From Lodderomyces elongisporus (lineage: Eukaryota; Ascomycota; Pichiomycetes; Serinales; Debaryomycetaceae): 64,000 nt of DNA. This document shows, piece after piece, positions 57,827-63,889 of this stretch. Location: contig NC_083673.1 in assembly GCF_030384665.1 (NCBI RefSeq), positions 3,357,501 through 3,421,500 of the forward strand, read 5' to 3'. The notes under the pieces are model-generated. The model saw nothing but the letters and a program-made list of their open reading frames with translations. It made no database searches and had not been told where the DNA came from. A program made the position numbers and the translations under genes. Numbering within the stretch: position 1 is the stretch's first letter; every line of letters begins with the position of its first letter.

Positions 57827-59114
57827 TGTGAGAAATTGTTTTTGTTATTGGTTGTTAAAGCTGATATGAATAAAGTGTAATTGGCTTATTTATTTATTTG
57901 TTTACTTGTTTATTTTTGAGGATTGATAAAGAGGTATTTATAGTGTTTATGGTAAACTAGCAATATTTAAAGAATTGAATGGAAATAATGGTTAGATAGA
58001 GCAAACGTCTAAAATGTGGCTTACTATGGTGCAGTATACGTCTATATGTAAATGTGTGTGCGTAATGGAGGGAAAAAAGATGAGTAAGCCGTGCCAAAAT
58101 GTATGTGTGGCAACGTCAAGCGTATATTGGAAGCAACAACGAAGAACTCAAGAGTAAATTATTGCTGAGTAATTCGGTGTCGGAGTTAACTGCACGATCC
58201 GGAGATGTCCAAAAGAAAAGCAAAACTGAGTGAGATAAAGACAACAAGACGAAGGAAAAAAACAAAATATAGAAATCGGAAACGGATAATAAATGACACG
58301 AAAAGAGAAAAGAAAAAAAAGAACAGAGAAGAAAAGAAAAGAACGGAACAGAACAGAAGTGACAGGAGACGTGAGACATGAGACAGAAACAACAAGGTTG
58401 ATAAGTCAAGTTTATGGTTTAGTCAGCTCAAGGGGGATTATAGCACGGAACAAAGGGTGGAGATAGCCGGTGATTAGCTATACCCGGATTACCAATTACT
58501 TTCTTTTAAAAATAAAAACAATTAAGCCAGGCCAATTTTACCAAAAAAAAAAAAGAAAGAAGAGAAAAAAGAGAAAAGAGAAAAGAGAAAAATGGAAAAC
58601 TACCCAAAGGCGGTACCTACCACCATACTTGTTTCCATATTAGACAACGATCTCCTAAGTTATTATAGGTAGCAAGTAATGTATGGTAGAAAATGCGGAT
58701 AAATTCAGCTCTCTATAGTAAAATAATTTCCTTATTTGGATGCAAACTCAAAAAGAAAGACGAGTATCACTTGTGTCGCATTTAAGTTGTCTCAGTCATT
58801 AGCAATTGAGAGACAATTCTGCACGTGACTTAGACAGCTAGTTCGTGTTTTGATTTTCTTTATTATTATTTTTTTTTAGTAACAAATTCGATATTGTTAT
58901 TGATTTGAAAAGACACTTTGAAACGTGAAATTTGATCACCAAATCACCAAGTGTTCAATATTTTTTTTTTCATTTCTATTATTATTGTTATTTCCAAGTT
59001 TCTTGACCACAAACCAAGATTTTGTCAAAGTTACTAAATAGCGATCAACACTTGGTTGTCACGTAAAATTGAGCTTTTCATATTACTTAATTCCAAAGCT
59101 TTCTCCATTAAACA
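57827..59114. promoter_or_regulatory. Divergent YIM1-like/GNA1 promoter region
   Basis: The 1.29-kb region has GAAAAG purine arrays (58255-58350, 58550-58592) and a CACGTGAC site (CACGTG at 58822-58827), about 290 bp before GNA1. No gene is seen; the frames at 58116-58409 on the minus strand are translations of the purine array. Confidence 0.5.
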
Positions 59115-59588
59115 ATGACGCAAGAACAAACACCAGCCACCACACTTCCTGAGGGTTACACATTCCGCGCTCTAGAAGCAAGCGACTACGCAAATGATTA
59201 CTTAGAGACATTGAAAGTGCTAACTACAGTAGGAGACATTTCAGAATCATCGTTTATTAAACTTATACAACATTGGCAAACCTACTCAAGCATATATCAC
59301 CCGCATGTCATCACAAACCCTCAAGGTAAAGTTGTCGCTACTGGGATGCTCCTAGTGGAATTAAAGGCCATCCATGAATGTGGCAAAGTAGGACATATCG
59401 AAGACATATCCGTTGCGCTGACTGAGCAAGGCAAGAAATTGGGCAACTATATGGTTTGCACTTTAAGTAGATTGGCCAAAGAACAAGGTTGTTACAAGGT
59501 CATTTTGGATTGCGGTGAGCATAATGTTGGATTTTATGAAAAATGTGGGTACAAACAAGCAGGTGTGGAAATGGCACAACGGTTCTGA
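59115..59588 (+). CDS. GNA1: Glucosamine-6-phosphate N-acetyltransferase
   Basis: Gna1 transfers acetyl from acetyl-CoA to glucosamine-6-phosphate, making GlcNAc-6-phosphate for UDP-GlcNAc. It feeds chitin, N-glycans and GPI anchors and is essential in yeast. It is a single GNAT fold of 157 residues: N-terminal YTFRALEASDYANDYLETLKVLT, the ECGKVGHIEDISV strand, the acetyl-CoA loop EQGKKLGNYMV, and CGEHNVGFYEKCGYKQAGVEM near the end. Length matches S. cerevisiae Gna1 (159). It is convergent with the SmG gene, 209 bp between stops. Confidence 0.97.
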   Translation: MTQEQTPATTLPEGYTFRALEASDYANDYLETLKVLTTVGDISESSFIKLIQHWQTYSSIYHPHVITNPQGKVVATGMLLVELKAIHECGKVGHIEDISVALTEQGKKLGNYMVCTLSRLAKEQGCYKVILDCGEHNVGFYEKCGYKQAGVEMAQRF

Positions 59589-59797
59589 AAACTACTCTGC
59601 CAATGACCAAAGTATTTGTGGGGAAAAAAAAAAACTAAACCTTTTCCAACAGAACATCAAATACCCAAACATATATACATATACAAATACATTTACATAT
59701 ATATGTGTATATATATATATGTATATGAATGTATAAACCCTTGACTTCCAAGCGATATTTCAATACCCTTACTCCACCCCATAGTCTAGGTCTTCAT

Positions 59798-60458
59798 TTA
59801 TATCTTGTCTAAAGTCTAGAATTGAAAAAAAAAACCGAAGTTAGTAAACAATGAACAAAAAATGATACCATATGAATCACTAAAAATTGAAATGGTAACA
59901 ATCCAAATAATATTAACAAAGACGGAAAAAAATAATAAAAAAAAAACAACATACCTCAATCGAAAGAATCGAGTTTCCTCTAATCACCTACAACTTAAAA
60001 GTTAGTAAATATTCTCGGTCCACAACACCCATAACATTTCAGTTTGACATACCGTTGTACCAATATTCAATTTCTCGCCATTGGACATCTCCTCGAGTGC
60101 TTCCACCAAGGTCAAATTCGAAAAAACCTAAATTTGTCTAGTTAGTAAATCTCTTCTTACTCATCATTCTGCTTTGCAGATATGTAAAAAATAAACTAGA
60201 GTAATATTTAATATATACATACATCGTACCCTTGCAATTTTCCAATGACTTTCCTGGAACCATTTAATTGCACAGAGACCTTTTTATCCATGTACTATAA
60301 GGGATATACAAGTTAGTACTATTTCTTTCTTGTGGTTTTGTTGTTTTTGTTTTTTGTTTTTTGTTTTTTGTTTTTTTTCTCCATTTTCGATCAATTTCAC
60401 TTCAAATATGGATAGAACTGATGGAACATACGCTTTTTAATTCGGGCTCAGTAATCAT
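59798..60458 (-). CDS. SMX2: Spliceosomal Sm protein G, five exons
   Basis: SmG is one of seven Sm ring proteins on U1, U2, U4 and U5 snRNAs. Exons on the minus strand are 60432-60458, 60223-60294, 60053-60127, 59955-59987 and 59798-59815 (27, 72, 75, 33 and 18 nt). Introns are 137, 95, 65 and 139 nt. All four start GTATGT and contain TACTAAC (at 60312-60318, 60141-60147, 60001-60007 and 59840-59846), end in TAG and are phase 0. The 74-residue product starts MITEPELKSYMDKK. It has Sm1 features LNGSRKVIGKLQGYD and the Sm2 motif VIRGNSILSIETLDKI. The Sm1 half is slightly divergent (VFSNLTLVEALEEM instead of the usual xFLNvVLDdA). The neighbouring GNA1 supports identity, since the two adjoin in S. 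cerevisiae. Confidence 0.93.
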
Positions 60459-60772
60459 GATTACAATAGATATGTTGACTTGTTGGTGTGAATTTGTCTC
60501 TCTGATATTCGTGATATAAGCGAACTAAGTAATGTTTTATGCCTGCGCCAGAATTGTGGTTCTCAAATATAAAGTCAAAAAATAGAAAAAAGAAAATAGA
60601 AAATAGAAATAGAAAAAAAAAAGTAAAAGTAAATAAAAGTGACACAAGGTTAAGTTGAAGGTCTTGTGTTTTCAAAGACACGACATTAAAAAAAATGACA
60701 CTTTATAAAACTACATCCAATTTCCAAAAAAATTGATAACATCTACATATATAATACTATAACTATATCCAA
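60459..60772. other. Spacer IES1 / SMX2
   Basis: The 314 bp between the IES1 stop and the SmG start has A-rich tracts (60575-60640) and no gene. It must serve as IES1 3' end and SmG promoter. Confidence 0.5.
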
Positions 60773-63391
60773 TTATAGCAGTACAGTCTCATTGTCAAGG
60801 TCAAACGATATCCGATTCTTTACCCCGCCAATCTTGAGACGCTGCTGCTTTTCTTTTTTCTCCAATTGTTTTATAAACAACTCATTGACGAAATTGATTA
60901 GTTGGAGCTCAAATGCCTTCCTCTCATTTGCCTTATTGAAATCTCCTTGCGATAGGAAATTGAAAACCACTGCATCTCCTGTATTTGTACCTGATACAGA
61001 TTTGTTCTCAGTTTCAACTCCTTCATTTTCGGTAGCACCACGATTATTTTCATTGACGCCTCCACCACCAACCTTTGCAGTTAAGGATTGACCAAAATTC
61101 TCATAAAGATACTTCTCGGTACCCTTGATCATGTCATGCCTAATGTCTTCCCATTCCAAACCAAGCAACTTGTTCCCAATAGTTCTCTTGTATCTGAAAT
61201 ACCGATAGATCCAATTACCCAAGATGGTAATTTTTTTGTTAAATGAAGCAGTACTCGCCTTTGATGAAGTACGCACATCATAAACTATAGGTCTCGAAAT
61301 CTCCACAAGGTCACACTTGTGAGCTATGGACTCTGTAGGTAATGGTTCATTGGGGAGGTAAGATGCTCTTTTGAAATGGGTTTTCAAGTTAAATAAACCA
61401 TCCATAGGAAATTGTAAATCATAGGAAGCGTTTGCACTACTGCCAATTCTAGTATCTTTGAAATTCTTACTTGTTAAGAATGTACTAAGGTAAGTATCAG
61501 AAACGGTTGACTTTTGCTCAGTCTCGACGCCTTTATTTCTCCTATATCTCCTTTTACCCGTTTGTGTTTTCTCTGATTTTGGCTTCACATCACTTTCTTC
61601 AATATCACTAAGGAACGAATCATCATGGTCCCCTGCAACTGAGGACGTTGTTGCTGCTGCTATTGCCGCGGCTCTTTTTCTGCTCCCGCTACCTGCCCGT
61701 TTCTCGCCTGTCAATTGCAGATGCAGACCAAGACCCAGACCCAGACCCAGACTCAGACCCAGACTCAGACCCAAGCTCAGCCTACCGAGTCTATCAACGG
61801 ATCTATGTGGTGTGTCATTACTATGATCCTCGCTCACATACTGCATTCTCGCTTTGAACATCTCATCAGCATACTGAATCTCATAGTCAGTATCCTTATC
61901 GTAATTGGCAAAATCTTCATCGGGTATTGGAACATCCTTGGGGAAAGAACCATCAATGCCAAATGGATTTTCACTCAACTGTTGACTTGAAAAGTCCGTC
62001 TCTAAATGTGAATATACAAGCCATAAAAATTGACGAGCTCTCACTTTAGGGTCGATCTTGACATTGACAAACAAATCAAGAATGTGGAAATCCTTATTGT
62101 CTATTATTGGAATGCCACTATTTGCATTTTCCAACAAAAACAATACTTGTGCAACATTCGTATTTGGTCTTTTCCCATTGGTGCTCAGCTTCATTAATTG
62201 CTCCAAGCTGTCAAACTTACCCTCTTCGTCTTCGTCGCACACGGCTTTGATTATAGATTTTAATCGCGGCGTATCTTGCAATTGATATACCGTGCCGCCA
62301 TCGGGACCTGTTTGCAATGATGGAATTGAATGGTATGTCCTCAATGTTGATTTCATATCATGCACAAAATTGATGGTGGTGTTCATTCGACCAACATTCA
62401 CCAATACACATACCTTCGACACACCTTTCCCTAGATTCTCATCACGTAGCAATTTCTCCTTGAGAATTTTGGAGCTCTTGCTAGACTCGGCCAAGGTTCG
62501 CACATAAATCTCTGCAAATGTCAATTTACTTGAATTATTAGCTCCAGGCACGTTCAGTTCGGGAAAAGAGTTTGTGAAGCACGCCGTCTTATCATCAAAA
62601 ATTGCTTGTAATAAGTCATATTGTATATCCTTTCTCCAGAAGGGCTCACCATCTCCTTTCTTTAATGATAGTTTTGAATTGGCAATGTTACTTTTTTTCT
62701 TTCTCTTTGATGATGATGATGATGACGTAGATGTTGATGAAGCAGACGATGGGGCTTTTCTCTTGGATGAGCGCGGGGTATTGTGGCTACTGTTGTGGTC
62801 GCGTTGACGGTTGTGATTGTTTTGTTTCAGACGGCTTGATGGTGCAATATAATCTTCATCATCACCCATGGTTGTTGAATTTATATCAGTCTCGTCATAG
62901 TCGTCATCTCCATCGTTATCGCCATCTGCCTCGCCATCTGCCTCGCCCTCGGCATCGGCATCATTTTCATCGTTATTTACACCAGCATTTGCATCAGTAT
63001 TTGGCGGTGGGGTCTCTATAAGATGTGAGATAGAATTGATGCCACGTGACGGGGTTGATGCATTTGCAGTTGAATCAATATTAGTAGATTTCGATGCTGT
63101 TGGGACTGTAGTTGTTGCTGTTGTTGCTGTTGTTTGCATGGGCCTTTGCACTGTTGTCTCCGTCGCATTTGCAGTTTCTATGATTCCATCATTCTCTGCA
63201 GTTTCAGCTGTAACTAAATCAGTTATAGAAAGTGCTCCTCCTCCACTTCCAACACTTCCTCCGCTTGTTTCACTTGATCGATGCTCAGAGCGTGTTGATG
63301 ATTGCGAATGTTGACGTGTGGGGCTCAGAGCCAATGCAGTTTCTTGTGATTTCGATGGTGTGTACCTATCATGTATCGGATCGTAACTCAT
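60773..63391 (-). CDS. IES1: INO80 chromatin-remodelling complex subunit Ies1
   Basis: Ies1 is a fungal-specific subunit of the INO80 nucleosome remodeller in the nucleus. The start at 63391 gives MSYDPIHDRYTPSKSQ, matching my memory of a YDPIHD-like N-terminus in Ies1. An in-frame ATG at 63454 would add 21 residues. After about 240 low-complexity residues (Ser/Thr/Ala/Asp-rich, with acidic GDNDGDDDYDE and a KRKKK basic patch) the conserved part begins at EPFWRKDIQYDLLQAIFDD. It runs through FAEIYVRTLAESSKSSKILKEKL and RARQFLWLVYSHLETDFS. A Leu-Gly-Leu-Ser repeat from a 6-nt unit (61727-61780) follows, then a C-terminal block with NWIYRYFRYKRTIGNKLLGLEWEDIR. Family call is from pattern memory. 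Confidence 0.82.
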   Translation of the reverse strand: MSYDPIHDRYTPSKSQETALALSPTRQHSQSSTRSEHRSSETSGGSVGSGGGALSITDLVTAETAENDGIIETANATETTVQRPMQTTATTATTTVPTASKSTNIDSTANASTPSRGINSISHLIETPPPNTDANAGVNNDENDADAEGEADGEADGDNDGDDDYDETDINSTTMGDDEDYIAPSSRLKQNNHNRQRDHNSSHNTPRSSKRKAPSSASSTSTSSSSSSKRKKKSNIANSKLSLKKGDGEPFWRKDIQYDLLQAIFDDKTACFTNSFPELNVPGANNSSKLTFAEIYVRTLAESSKSSKILKEKLLRDENLGKGVSKVCVLVNVGRMNTTINFVHDMKSTLRTYHSIPSLQTGPDGGTVYQLQDTPRLKSIIKAVCDEDEEGKFDSLEQLMKLSTNGKRPNTNVAQVLFLLENANSGIPIIDNKDFHILDLFVNVKIDPKVRARQFLWLVYSHLETDFSSQQLSENPFGIDGSFPKDVPIPDEDFANYDKDTDYEIQYADEMFKARMQYVSEDHSNDTPHRSVDRLGRLSLGLSLGLSLGLGLGLGLHLQLTGEKRAGSGSRKRAAAIAAATTSSVAGDHDDSFLSDIEESDVKPKSEKTQTGKRRYRRNKGVETEQKSTVSDTYLSTFLTSKNFKDTRIGSSANASYDLQFPMDGLFNLKTHFKRASYLPNEPLPTESIAHKCDLVEISRPIVYDVRTSSKASTASFNKKITILGNWIYRYFRYKRTIGNKLLGLEWEDIRHDMIKGTEKYLYENFGQSLTAKVGGGGVNENNRGATENEGVETENKSVSGTNTGDAVVFNFLSQGDFNKANERKAFELQLINFVNELFIKQLEKKEKQQRLKIGGVKNRISFDLDNETVLL
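61727..61780. repeat. Hexanucleotide repeat inside IES1
   Basis: Units AGACCC and AGACTC repeat about nine times on the plus strand and encode the alternating Leu-Gly/Leu-Ser run of IES1. Unit number is likely to vary between strains. Confidence 0.8.
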
Positions 63392-63889
63392 TCTTGTAAT
63401 TCGAGGGGCGGAGTGGAAAGTGAATAGCTGAAATATGGACAATGGAGGTTTCAAAATCGATTTCGTGTGGTTGAACTGTATTTTGAAAACTTATTATTTT
63501 TCCTATTTTTTTCTTTTCTTTTGGCTTTCAAAGCTCTGACGCACTTTACAATTTGCGCGTTGGGTATTCTGTTTAGGCAAGGTCAAGACAAGTGATACTA
63601 ATTATTATTTTATGGCTCAATTCAACCAATGTCTTCTAGAGTAATACTTTAAAAAAAAACCTAGTCTATCTAATGCCTTCCTCGTGCCCATCACCTCCCT
63701 TTCTTCTTGTTCCATTTATTTCCTTTATTTTCCACTATAAGTTTGAACACCTTTTTTTTTCCATACATCATGGTAAATCATGATGATTCATGATGGGCCA
63801 TGTTTTGCTATTACAATATACAAATAATCTACATTCTTCAACAGGAGAAAATTAGGAAAAAAAAATAAAAAAAAATGAGAAGTCTATTT
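63392..63889. promoter_or_regulatory. IES1 promoter and 3' region of the next gene
   Basis: T-runs and a CATGATG-type repeat (63768-63800: CATCATGGTAAATCATGATGATTCATGATG, with several ATCATGAT palindromes) are present. No gene is seen before 63890. Confidence 0.5.

What the first reader, a model, noticed from the sequence alone, without database searches (positions are those of the whole stretch)
59798..60458. Hidden five-exon SmG gene: a core splicing protein that itself needs four splicing events
The minus strand holds five phase-0 exons (27, 72, 75, 33, 18 nt) with four GTATGT...TACTAAC...TAG introns, giving a 74-residue SmG. The S. cerevisiae SMX2 gene is intronless as I recall. Yeast genes with four introns are very rare, and no exon here exceeds 25 codons, so ORF-based annotation would miss it. 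As SmG is an snRNP component, its level could be self-limiting through its own splicing.
Basis: partly seen in the sequence, partly recalled or inferred. Interest (0 to 1): 0.85.

Follow-up and report, generated by a model that had tools for sequence, protein, structure and literature searches.

The report
Four-intron SmG gene in a yeast
The sequence holds a real gene for SmG, a core protein of the splicing machinery, cut into five tiny exons; the cuts are old and shared with related yeasts, so it is an unusually intron-rich but otherwise ordinary gene, and nothing found shows that it controls its own level.

Summary
Five phase-0 exons (27, 72, 75, 33, 18 nt) on the minus strand, with four GTATGT...TACTAAC...TAG introns (137, 95, 65, 139 nt), encode a 74-residue SmG. 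No second SmG was found in the genome, which is Lodderomyces elongisporus NRRL YB-4239. A public contig encodes residues 11-74 uninterrupted and identical (P0001), so junctions 2-4 exist in RNA; junction 1 rests on sequence and homology.

Each of the four positions recurs in at least one homolog's model that runs into an intron there (13 departures in 12 of 39 proteins), so the architecture is inherited. The Candida albicans ortholog is published with three introns and partly spliced isoforms (PMC7426172). 'Hidden' could not be tested. 'Self-limiting' is unsupported: retention makes early stops, but needing its own splicing is positive feedback, signals are perfect consensus, and no regulatory element appeared.

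Wider observation: 9 of 16 Sm/LSm-domain loci carry strict introns, against 2 of 27 control loci (6 of 27 on the most generous count).

The parts
60432..60458 (-). SmG exon 1 (27 nt, MITEPELKS)
   Evidence: junction 1 not covered by P0001
60295..60431 (-). intron 1, 137 nt, GTATGT / TACTAAC / TAG, phase 0
   Evidence: same acceptor position in P0029
60223..60294 (-). SmG exon 2 (72 nt, YMDKKVSVQLNGSRKVIGKLQGYD)
   Evidence: P0001 from its Met onward; the matching stretch is duplicated exactly in a Verticillium model, P0163
60128..60222 (-). intron 2, 95 nt, phase 0
   Evidence: same position read through in P0028
60053..60127 (-). SmG exon 3 (75 nt, VFSNLTLVEALEEMSNGEKLNIGTT)
   Evidence: P0001
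59988..60052 (-). intron 3, 65 nt, phase 0
   Evidence: same position read through in P0022, P0024, P0036
59955..59987 (-). SmG exon 4 (33 nt, VIRGNSILSIE, Sm2 motif)
   Evidence: P0001
59816..59954 (-). intron 4, 139 nt, phase 0
   Evidence: same position read through in P0010, P0014, P0016, P0020, P0029, P0037, P0038, P0039
59798..59815 (-). SmG exon 5 (18 nt, TLDKI stop)
   Evidence: P0001
59115..59588 (+). GNA1, glucosamine 6-phosphate N-acetyltransferase, convergent neighbour (context, not part of SmG)

Best explanation
This is the SmG (SMX2) gene, the only one found, of Lodderomyces elongisporus. It has kept four old phase-0 spliceosomal introns that S. cerevisiae SMX2 (recalled as intronless) lacks. 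All four have ordinary consensus signals and are presumably removed constitutively; retention of any one truncates or alters the protein. Shown: gene structure, SmG identity, RNA junctions 2-4, and each position shared with at least one homolog. Inferred: junction 1 in RNA, constitutive splicing, decay of unspliced RNA, and retention by common descent rather than by selection for regulation.
For: Consensus introns and an intact spliced SmG. Uninterrupted identical residues 11-74 in a public contig. No second SmG by domain or protein search. Thirteen departures at the four positions in 12 of 39 homologs; of 12 donor-side departures 10 begin VC (GTATGT read in phase 0), one VS, one VR (at position 3 the V is also the normal residue, so there the departure shows at the C). 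The three read-through introns that reach an acceptor end in CTNHQ, STNLQ and HTNPQ, letters compatible with TACTAAC, three bases, CAG. P0163 repeats exactly the exon 2 stretch, and a repeat in P0164 ends at position 3, hinting at still older positions. C. albicans SMX2 is published with three introns. Retention of intron 1, 2, 3 or 4 gives products of 18, 37, 74 or 82 residues.
Against: P0001 begins at the Met in exon 2, so it could stem from RNA that kept intron 1, or simply from the start chosen by the gene finder; I could not see the contig. Intron content varies: P0029, on a 60,581-base contig and therefore probably genomic, departs at positions 1 and 4 but has exons 2-3-4 uninterrupted. 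Position 1 and position 2 rest on one homolog each within the 39. The positions in Verticillium and Elysia rest on one odd model each. Clustering of introns in Sm/LSm genes may mean that plain inheritance is not the whole story.
Confidence: 0.92

Rival explanations
1. Splicing-capacity coupling: SmG, and Sm/LSm genes generally, keep introns because gating their expression by splicing is useful. With four introns SmG output would fall steeply when splicing is limiting (positive feedback or a sensor), with unspliced RNA decayed.
For: 9 of 16 LSM-domain loci carry a strict intron against 2 of 27 proteasome and ubiquitin-conjugating loci (Fisher one-sided p 0.0007; without SmG 8 of 15, p 0.0016). 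Every single retained intron introduces a stop before the normal end of the frame. C. albicans SMX2 shows only unspliced RNA under menadione and partly spliced isoforms under amphotericin B.
Against: If every sense TACTAAC in the controls is counted as an intron, it is 9 of 16 against 6 of 27, p 0.027, and without SmG 8 of 15, p 0.045. All SmG signals are perfect consensus, unlike typical regulated yeast introns (recalled). No unusual folding (z -0.34 to -1.56), no Sm-site-like motif, no Rfam match. Small control set, chosen by me; gene size and expression not matched.
Confidence: 0.12
2. Negative (self-limiting) feedback: excess SmG reduces productive splicing of its own pre-mRNA, like the regulatory exon of human SNRPB.
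For: Precedent in human SNRPB (PMC4109005, abstract and introduction). Retained introns hold stops.
Against: No second GTATGT and no second branch-like site in any intron, so no obvious poison exon, though weaker sites were not scanned. Dependence on own splicing alone gives positive feedback. Exon skipping stays in frame, so it would not trigger decay.
Confidence: 0.03
3. Not an active gene: a chance array or a decayed copy.
For: None found.
Against: Intact SmG, no rival copy found, RNA-like contig, zero of 1000 shuffles.
Confidence: 0.01

Closest known systems
Candida albicans SMX2 (C2_03880C_A)
   Same: SmG ortholog with several introns; unspliced and partly spliced isoforms seen on gels (PMC7426172, passage)
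   Different: 453 bp with three introns as published, against 661 bp and four here; which position is missing was not determined
Saccharomyces cerevisiae SMX2
   Same: SmG; PDB 3jcm chain X (organism recalled) matches at E 5e-19
Human SNRPB auto-regulation (alternative exon with a premature stop)
   Same: a core Sm gene whose level depends on its own splicing (PMC4109005, abstract and introduction)
   Different: uses a regulatory exon with a premature stop; none seen here
LSM7-like gene of the same genome (L010; name recalled)
   Same: LSM-domain gene with two GTATGT/TACTAAC introns
   Different: its second intron interrupts the domain at another place than SmG introns 2 and 3 (compared by eye)

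Membership tests
SmG (SMX2/SNRPG) | LSM domain | tested here: met
   PF01423, 66.3 bits, cut-off 23.4
SmG (SMX2/SNRPG) | closest to SmG rather than other Sm/LSm proteins | tested here: met
   ten best PDB sequences are named SmG (nine at E 9.8e-24 to 4.4e-15, the tenth 9.4e-10); LSm7 4.1e-8
SmG (SMX2/SNRPG) | sits in the heptameric Sm ring of snRNPs | not testable with these tools
   needs biochemistry
U2-type spliceosomal introns of yeast | GTATGT donor, TACTAAC branch site, YAG acceptor | tested here: met
   4 of 4 introns
U2-type spliceosomal introns of yeast | removed from RNA | tested here: inconclusive
   P0001 supports junctions 2-4; junction 1 not covered
Self-regulating splicing-factor genes (SNRPB type) | alternative exon or site with a premature stop whose use rises with protein level | tested here: inconclusive
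   no second GTATGT or branch-like site in any intron, but weaker sites were not scanned and the response to protein level is not testable here

The most novel reading that the evidence does not exclude
In Serinales yeasts the Sm and LSm genes have collectively resisted intron loss because their introns couple production of the splicing machinery to splicing capacity; SmG, needing four events for a 74-residue protein, is the steepest node, its output varying roughly as the fourth power of per-intron efficiency.
Probability: 0.1. Interest if true: 0.65.

Novelty: new member of a known kind. Interest (0 to 1): 0.3.

Why it matters
It is a compact case of old introns surviving in a lineage with few introns, in a gene whose product serves splicing. 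It also explains why SmG is often mis-modelled in these yeasts. If the wider intron enrichment among Sm/LSm genes holds against properly matched controls, it would give a testable answer to why intron-poor genomes keep the introns they keep.

Tried and rejected
Chance array: rejected. Paralogue LSm7 instead of SmG: rejected. Second intact SmG: none found (six-frame searches, exon by exon, best candidates only). Intronic known RNA: no Rfam match at gathering threshold in 59000-61400. Structured introns: z -0.57, -0.34, -0.37, -1.56. Sm-site-like motif in introns: none. Missing database names as proof of missing annotation: dropped, because the GNA1 neighbour has no named record of this species among the 120 listed of 1268 hits either. 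Deep intron ages from the profile search: 120 of 4376 hits are listed, 20 of those were read for this, and two models were informative. A C. albicans intron survey that I looked up by recalled DOI is not held. Six minus-strand loci were read in the wrong orientation and redone. P0031 departs near position 1 but without a branch-site signature; not counted. P0012, P0013 and P0027 end or change near position 4; not counted.

Full report
Observation. The minus strand of 59798-60458 reads exactly as described: five phase-0 exons of 27, 72, 75, 33 and 18 nt and four introns of 137, 95, 65 and 139 nt, each with GTATGT, a single TACTAAC and a TAG acceptor 17, 13, 13 and 24 nt after it. Spliced, they give MITEPELKS / YMDKKVSVQLNGSRKVIGKLQGYD / VFSNLTLVEALEEMSNGEKLNIGTT / VIRGNSILSIE / TLDKI. 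TACTAAC as such is not rare in the window (9 found, 5.9 expected, 18 of 100 shuffles with at least 9), but four of the nine lie here, and the most strict introns met in any of 1000 shuffles of 1101 nt was 0, against 4 observed.

Organism. The genome behind the window has 16,086,460 bases in 8 contigs, with C1 of 3,597,007 and C3 of 2,328,861 bases. These equal the total length, contig number, largest scaffold and N50 printed for Lodderomyces elongisporus NRRL YB-4239, GCA_030384665.1 (PMC10586162, read but for the end of its reference list). That paper says annotation used funannotate with a Trinity assembly of RNA-seq, so I cannot say that the gene was missed; the deposited gene table is not held here.

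Identity. The ten best PDB sequences are named SmG (nine at E 9.8e-24 to 4.4e-15, one at 9.4e-10), followed by an archaeal Sm-like protein at 2.5e-8 and LSm7 at 4.1e-8. Pfam LSM scores 66.3 bits. A six-frame search of the genome with the protein finds two stretches of this gene (E 5.5e-10 and 6.5e-10) and four weaker matches elsewhere (E 8.6e-5 to 0.34), which overlap other LSM-domain loci. The LSM family search lists 19 matches, which I read as 16 genes, two second pieces (L018, L019) and one likely false one (L017).

RNA evidence. Protein P0001, from a single public contig of 1162 bases, is 64 aa and identical to residues 11-74 without interruption. Genomic DNA of this gene cannot yield it, so I take it as spliced RNA: junctions 2, 3 and 4 are supported. 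Its start at the exon 2 Met fits either RNA that retained intron 1 or the gene finder's choice of start; P0011 and P0026, alike but for the start, show both forms.

Evolution. I had no fungal genomes other than this one to search, so I used mistakes in public protein models as intron markers. Among all 39 proteins of the search (read, tabulated), 12 carry 13 departures from SmG exactly at the four positions: position 1 in P0029; position 2 in P0028 (Suhomyces); position 3 in P0022 (Spathaspora), P0024 (Candida pseudojiufengensis) and P0036; position 4 in P0010, P0014 (Candida maltosa), P0016 (Clavispora), P0020 (Sungouiella), P0029, P0037, P0038 and P0039. Of the 12 donor-side departures 10 begin VC, the phase-0 reading of GTATGT (at position 3 the V is also the normal residue). 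The three read-through introns that reach an acceptor end in CTNHQ, STNLQ and HTNPQ, letters compatible with TACTAAC, three bases, CAG. The positions are therefore shared, in the same phase, across several Serinales genera (order membership mostly recalled). The remaining 27 of 39 show no departure that I counted; for spliced or well-curated models this says nothing about introns. Presence varies: P0029, on a 60,581-base contig, departs at 1 and 4 but has exons 2-4 uninterrupted. From the wider profile search (120 of 4376 listed, 20 of those read), a Verticillium longisporum model (P0163) repeats exactly the exon 2 stretch, and in an Elysia model (P0164) a repeat ends at position 3. These hint that positions 1-3 are older than the order, on one odd model each.

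Published relative. In C. albicans, SMX2 (C2_03880C_A) is stated to be 453 bp with three introns, with only the unspliced form seen under menadione and partly spliced forms under amphotericin B (PMC7426172, passages). A multi-intron SmG in this clade is therefore already in print. C. albicans is given as having introns in about 6% of genes, mainly single (PMC11323467, passages).

How exceptional. Three genome scans for GTATGT...TACTAAC...TAG gave 38, 24 and 24 rows, against 14, 14 and 12 for the reversed control pattern, so a good part of the rows is chance. Merged by hand to 77 places (nine rows with a shared donor within a scan dropped), only the SmG locus has two or more different donors within 5 kb on a strand (the other listed pair is one donor with two acceptors). 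This is a lower bound, as the LSM7-like gene has two introns of which one escaped the scans.

Sm/LSm genes. Within 500 nt of the match in 16 LSM-domain loci I find 13 strict introns in 9 loci: four in SmG, two in the LSM7-like gene, and one each in genes that I name from recalled sequence as SmB, SmD2, SmF, LSM2, LSM4, LSM6 and LSM8; none in the other seven. Controls: proteasome subunits 2 of 14 loci, ubiquitin-conjugating enzymes 0 of 13. Fisher one-sided p 0.0007, or 0.0016 without SmG. Four ubiquitin-conjugating loci have a sense TACTAAC for which my script accepted no intron; counting them as introns gives 6 of 27 and p 0.027, or 0.045 without SmG. The controls were my choice and are not matched for length or expression.

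Mechanism. Retaining intron 1, 2, 3 or 4 ends translation after 18, 37, 74 or 82 residues, so splicing is needed for normal SmG. That does not make it self-limiting: low SmG would mean poorer splicing and still less SmG. Human SNRPB achieves auto-regulation with an alternative exon holding a premature stop (PMC4109005, abstract and introduction). Here each intron has one GTATGT and one branch-like site and no Sm-site-like motif (weaker sites not scanned), there is no Rfam match, and folding is within what shuffles give (z -0.34 to -1.56). Skipping the internal exons in the six combinations tried keeps the frame. I therefore favour constitutive splicing of inherited introns, with splicing-capacity coupling as the main rival.

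Verdict. Real, correctly described, of a known kind, with an interesting intron enrichment in its gene family that deserves a proper test. Searches for print; in their listings (titles and starts of abstracts, capped) I saw no paper on SmG introns in L. elongisporus, and the library lacks most subscription journals.

Noticed in passing
L002, L003, L004, L005, L009, L010, L013, L014, L016 (own genome): Nine of 16 LSM-domain loci carry GTATGT/TACTAAC introns, 13 in all, against 2 of 27 control loci (6 of 27 on the most generous count); several sit right after or close to the start codon, and two (LSM2-like, LSM6-like; names recalled) near the stop.
   Followed up: partly
P0014, P0016, P0020, P0022, P0024, P0028: Six of 17 named Serinales SmG models among the 39 hits run into an intron; P0012, P0013 and P0027 are cut or odd near position 4, eight look normal (order membership recalled except Babjeviella).
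   Followed up: partly
window 59115-60458: SmG and GNA1 are convergent neighbours; hits for the two proteins share the same longest-contig length in at least 11 cases, three of them on short contigs (1300, 1692 and 9827 bases), suggesting that the linkage is old (inference from lengths only).
   Followed up: no
P0006: An SmG model filed under the basidiomycete Cerrena zonata (group recalled) resembles Serinales SmG (70% identity to the window's); possibly contamination.
   Followed up: no
P0163: A Verticillium longisporum SmG model contains the exon 2 stretch exactly twice; annotation error or real exon duplication.
   Followed up: no
window 60773-63454 (-): Low-complexity-rich 893-residue frame upstream of SmG without a Pfam match at E 0.001, with 14 CTG codons read as serine, nine of them between residues 559 and 579.
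   Followed up: no
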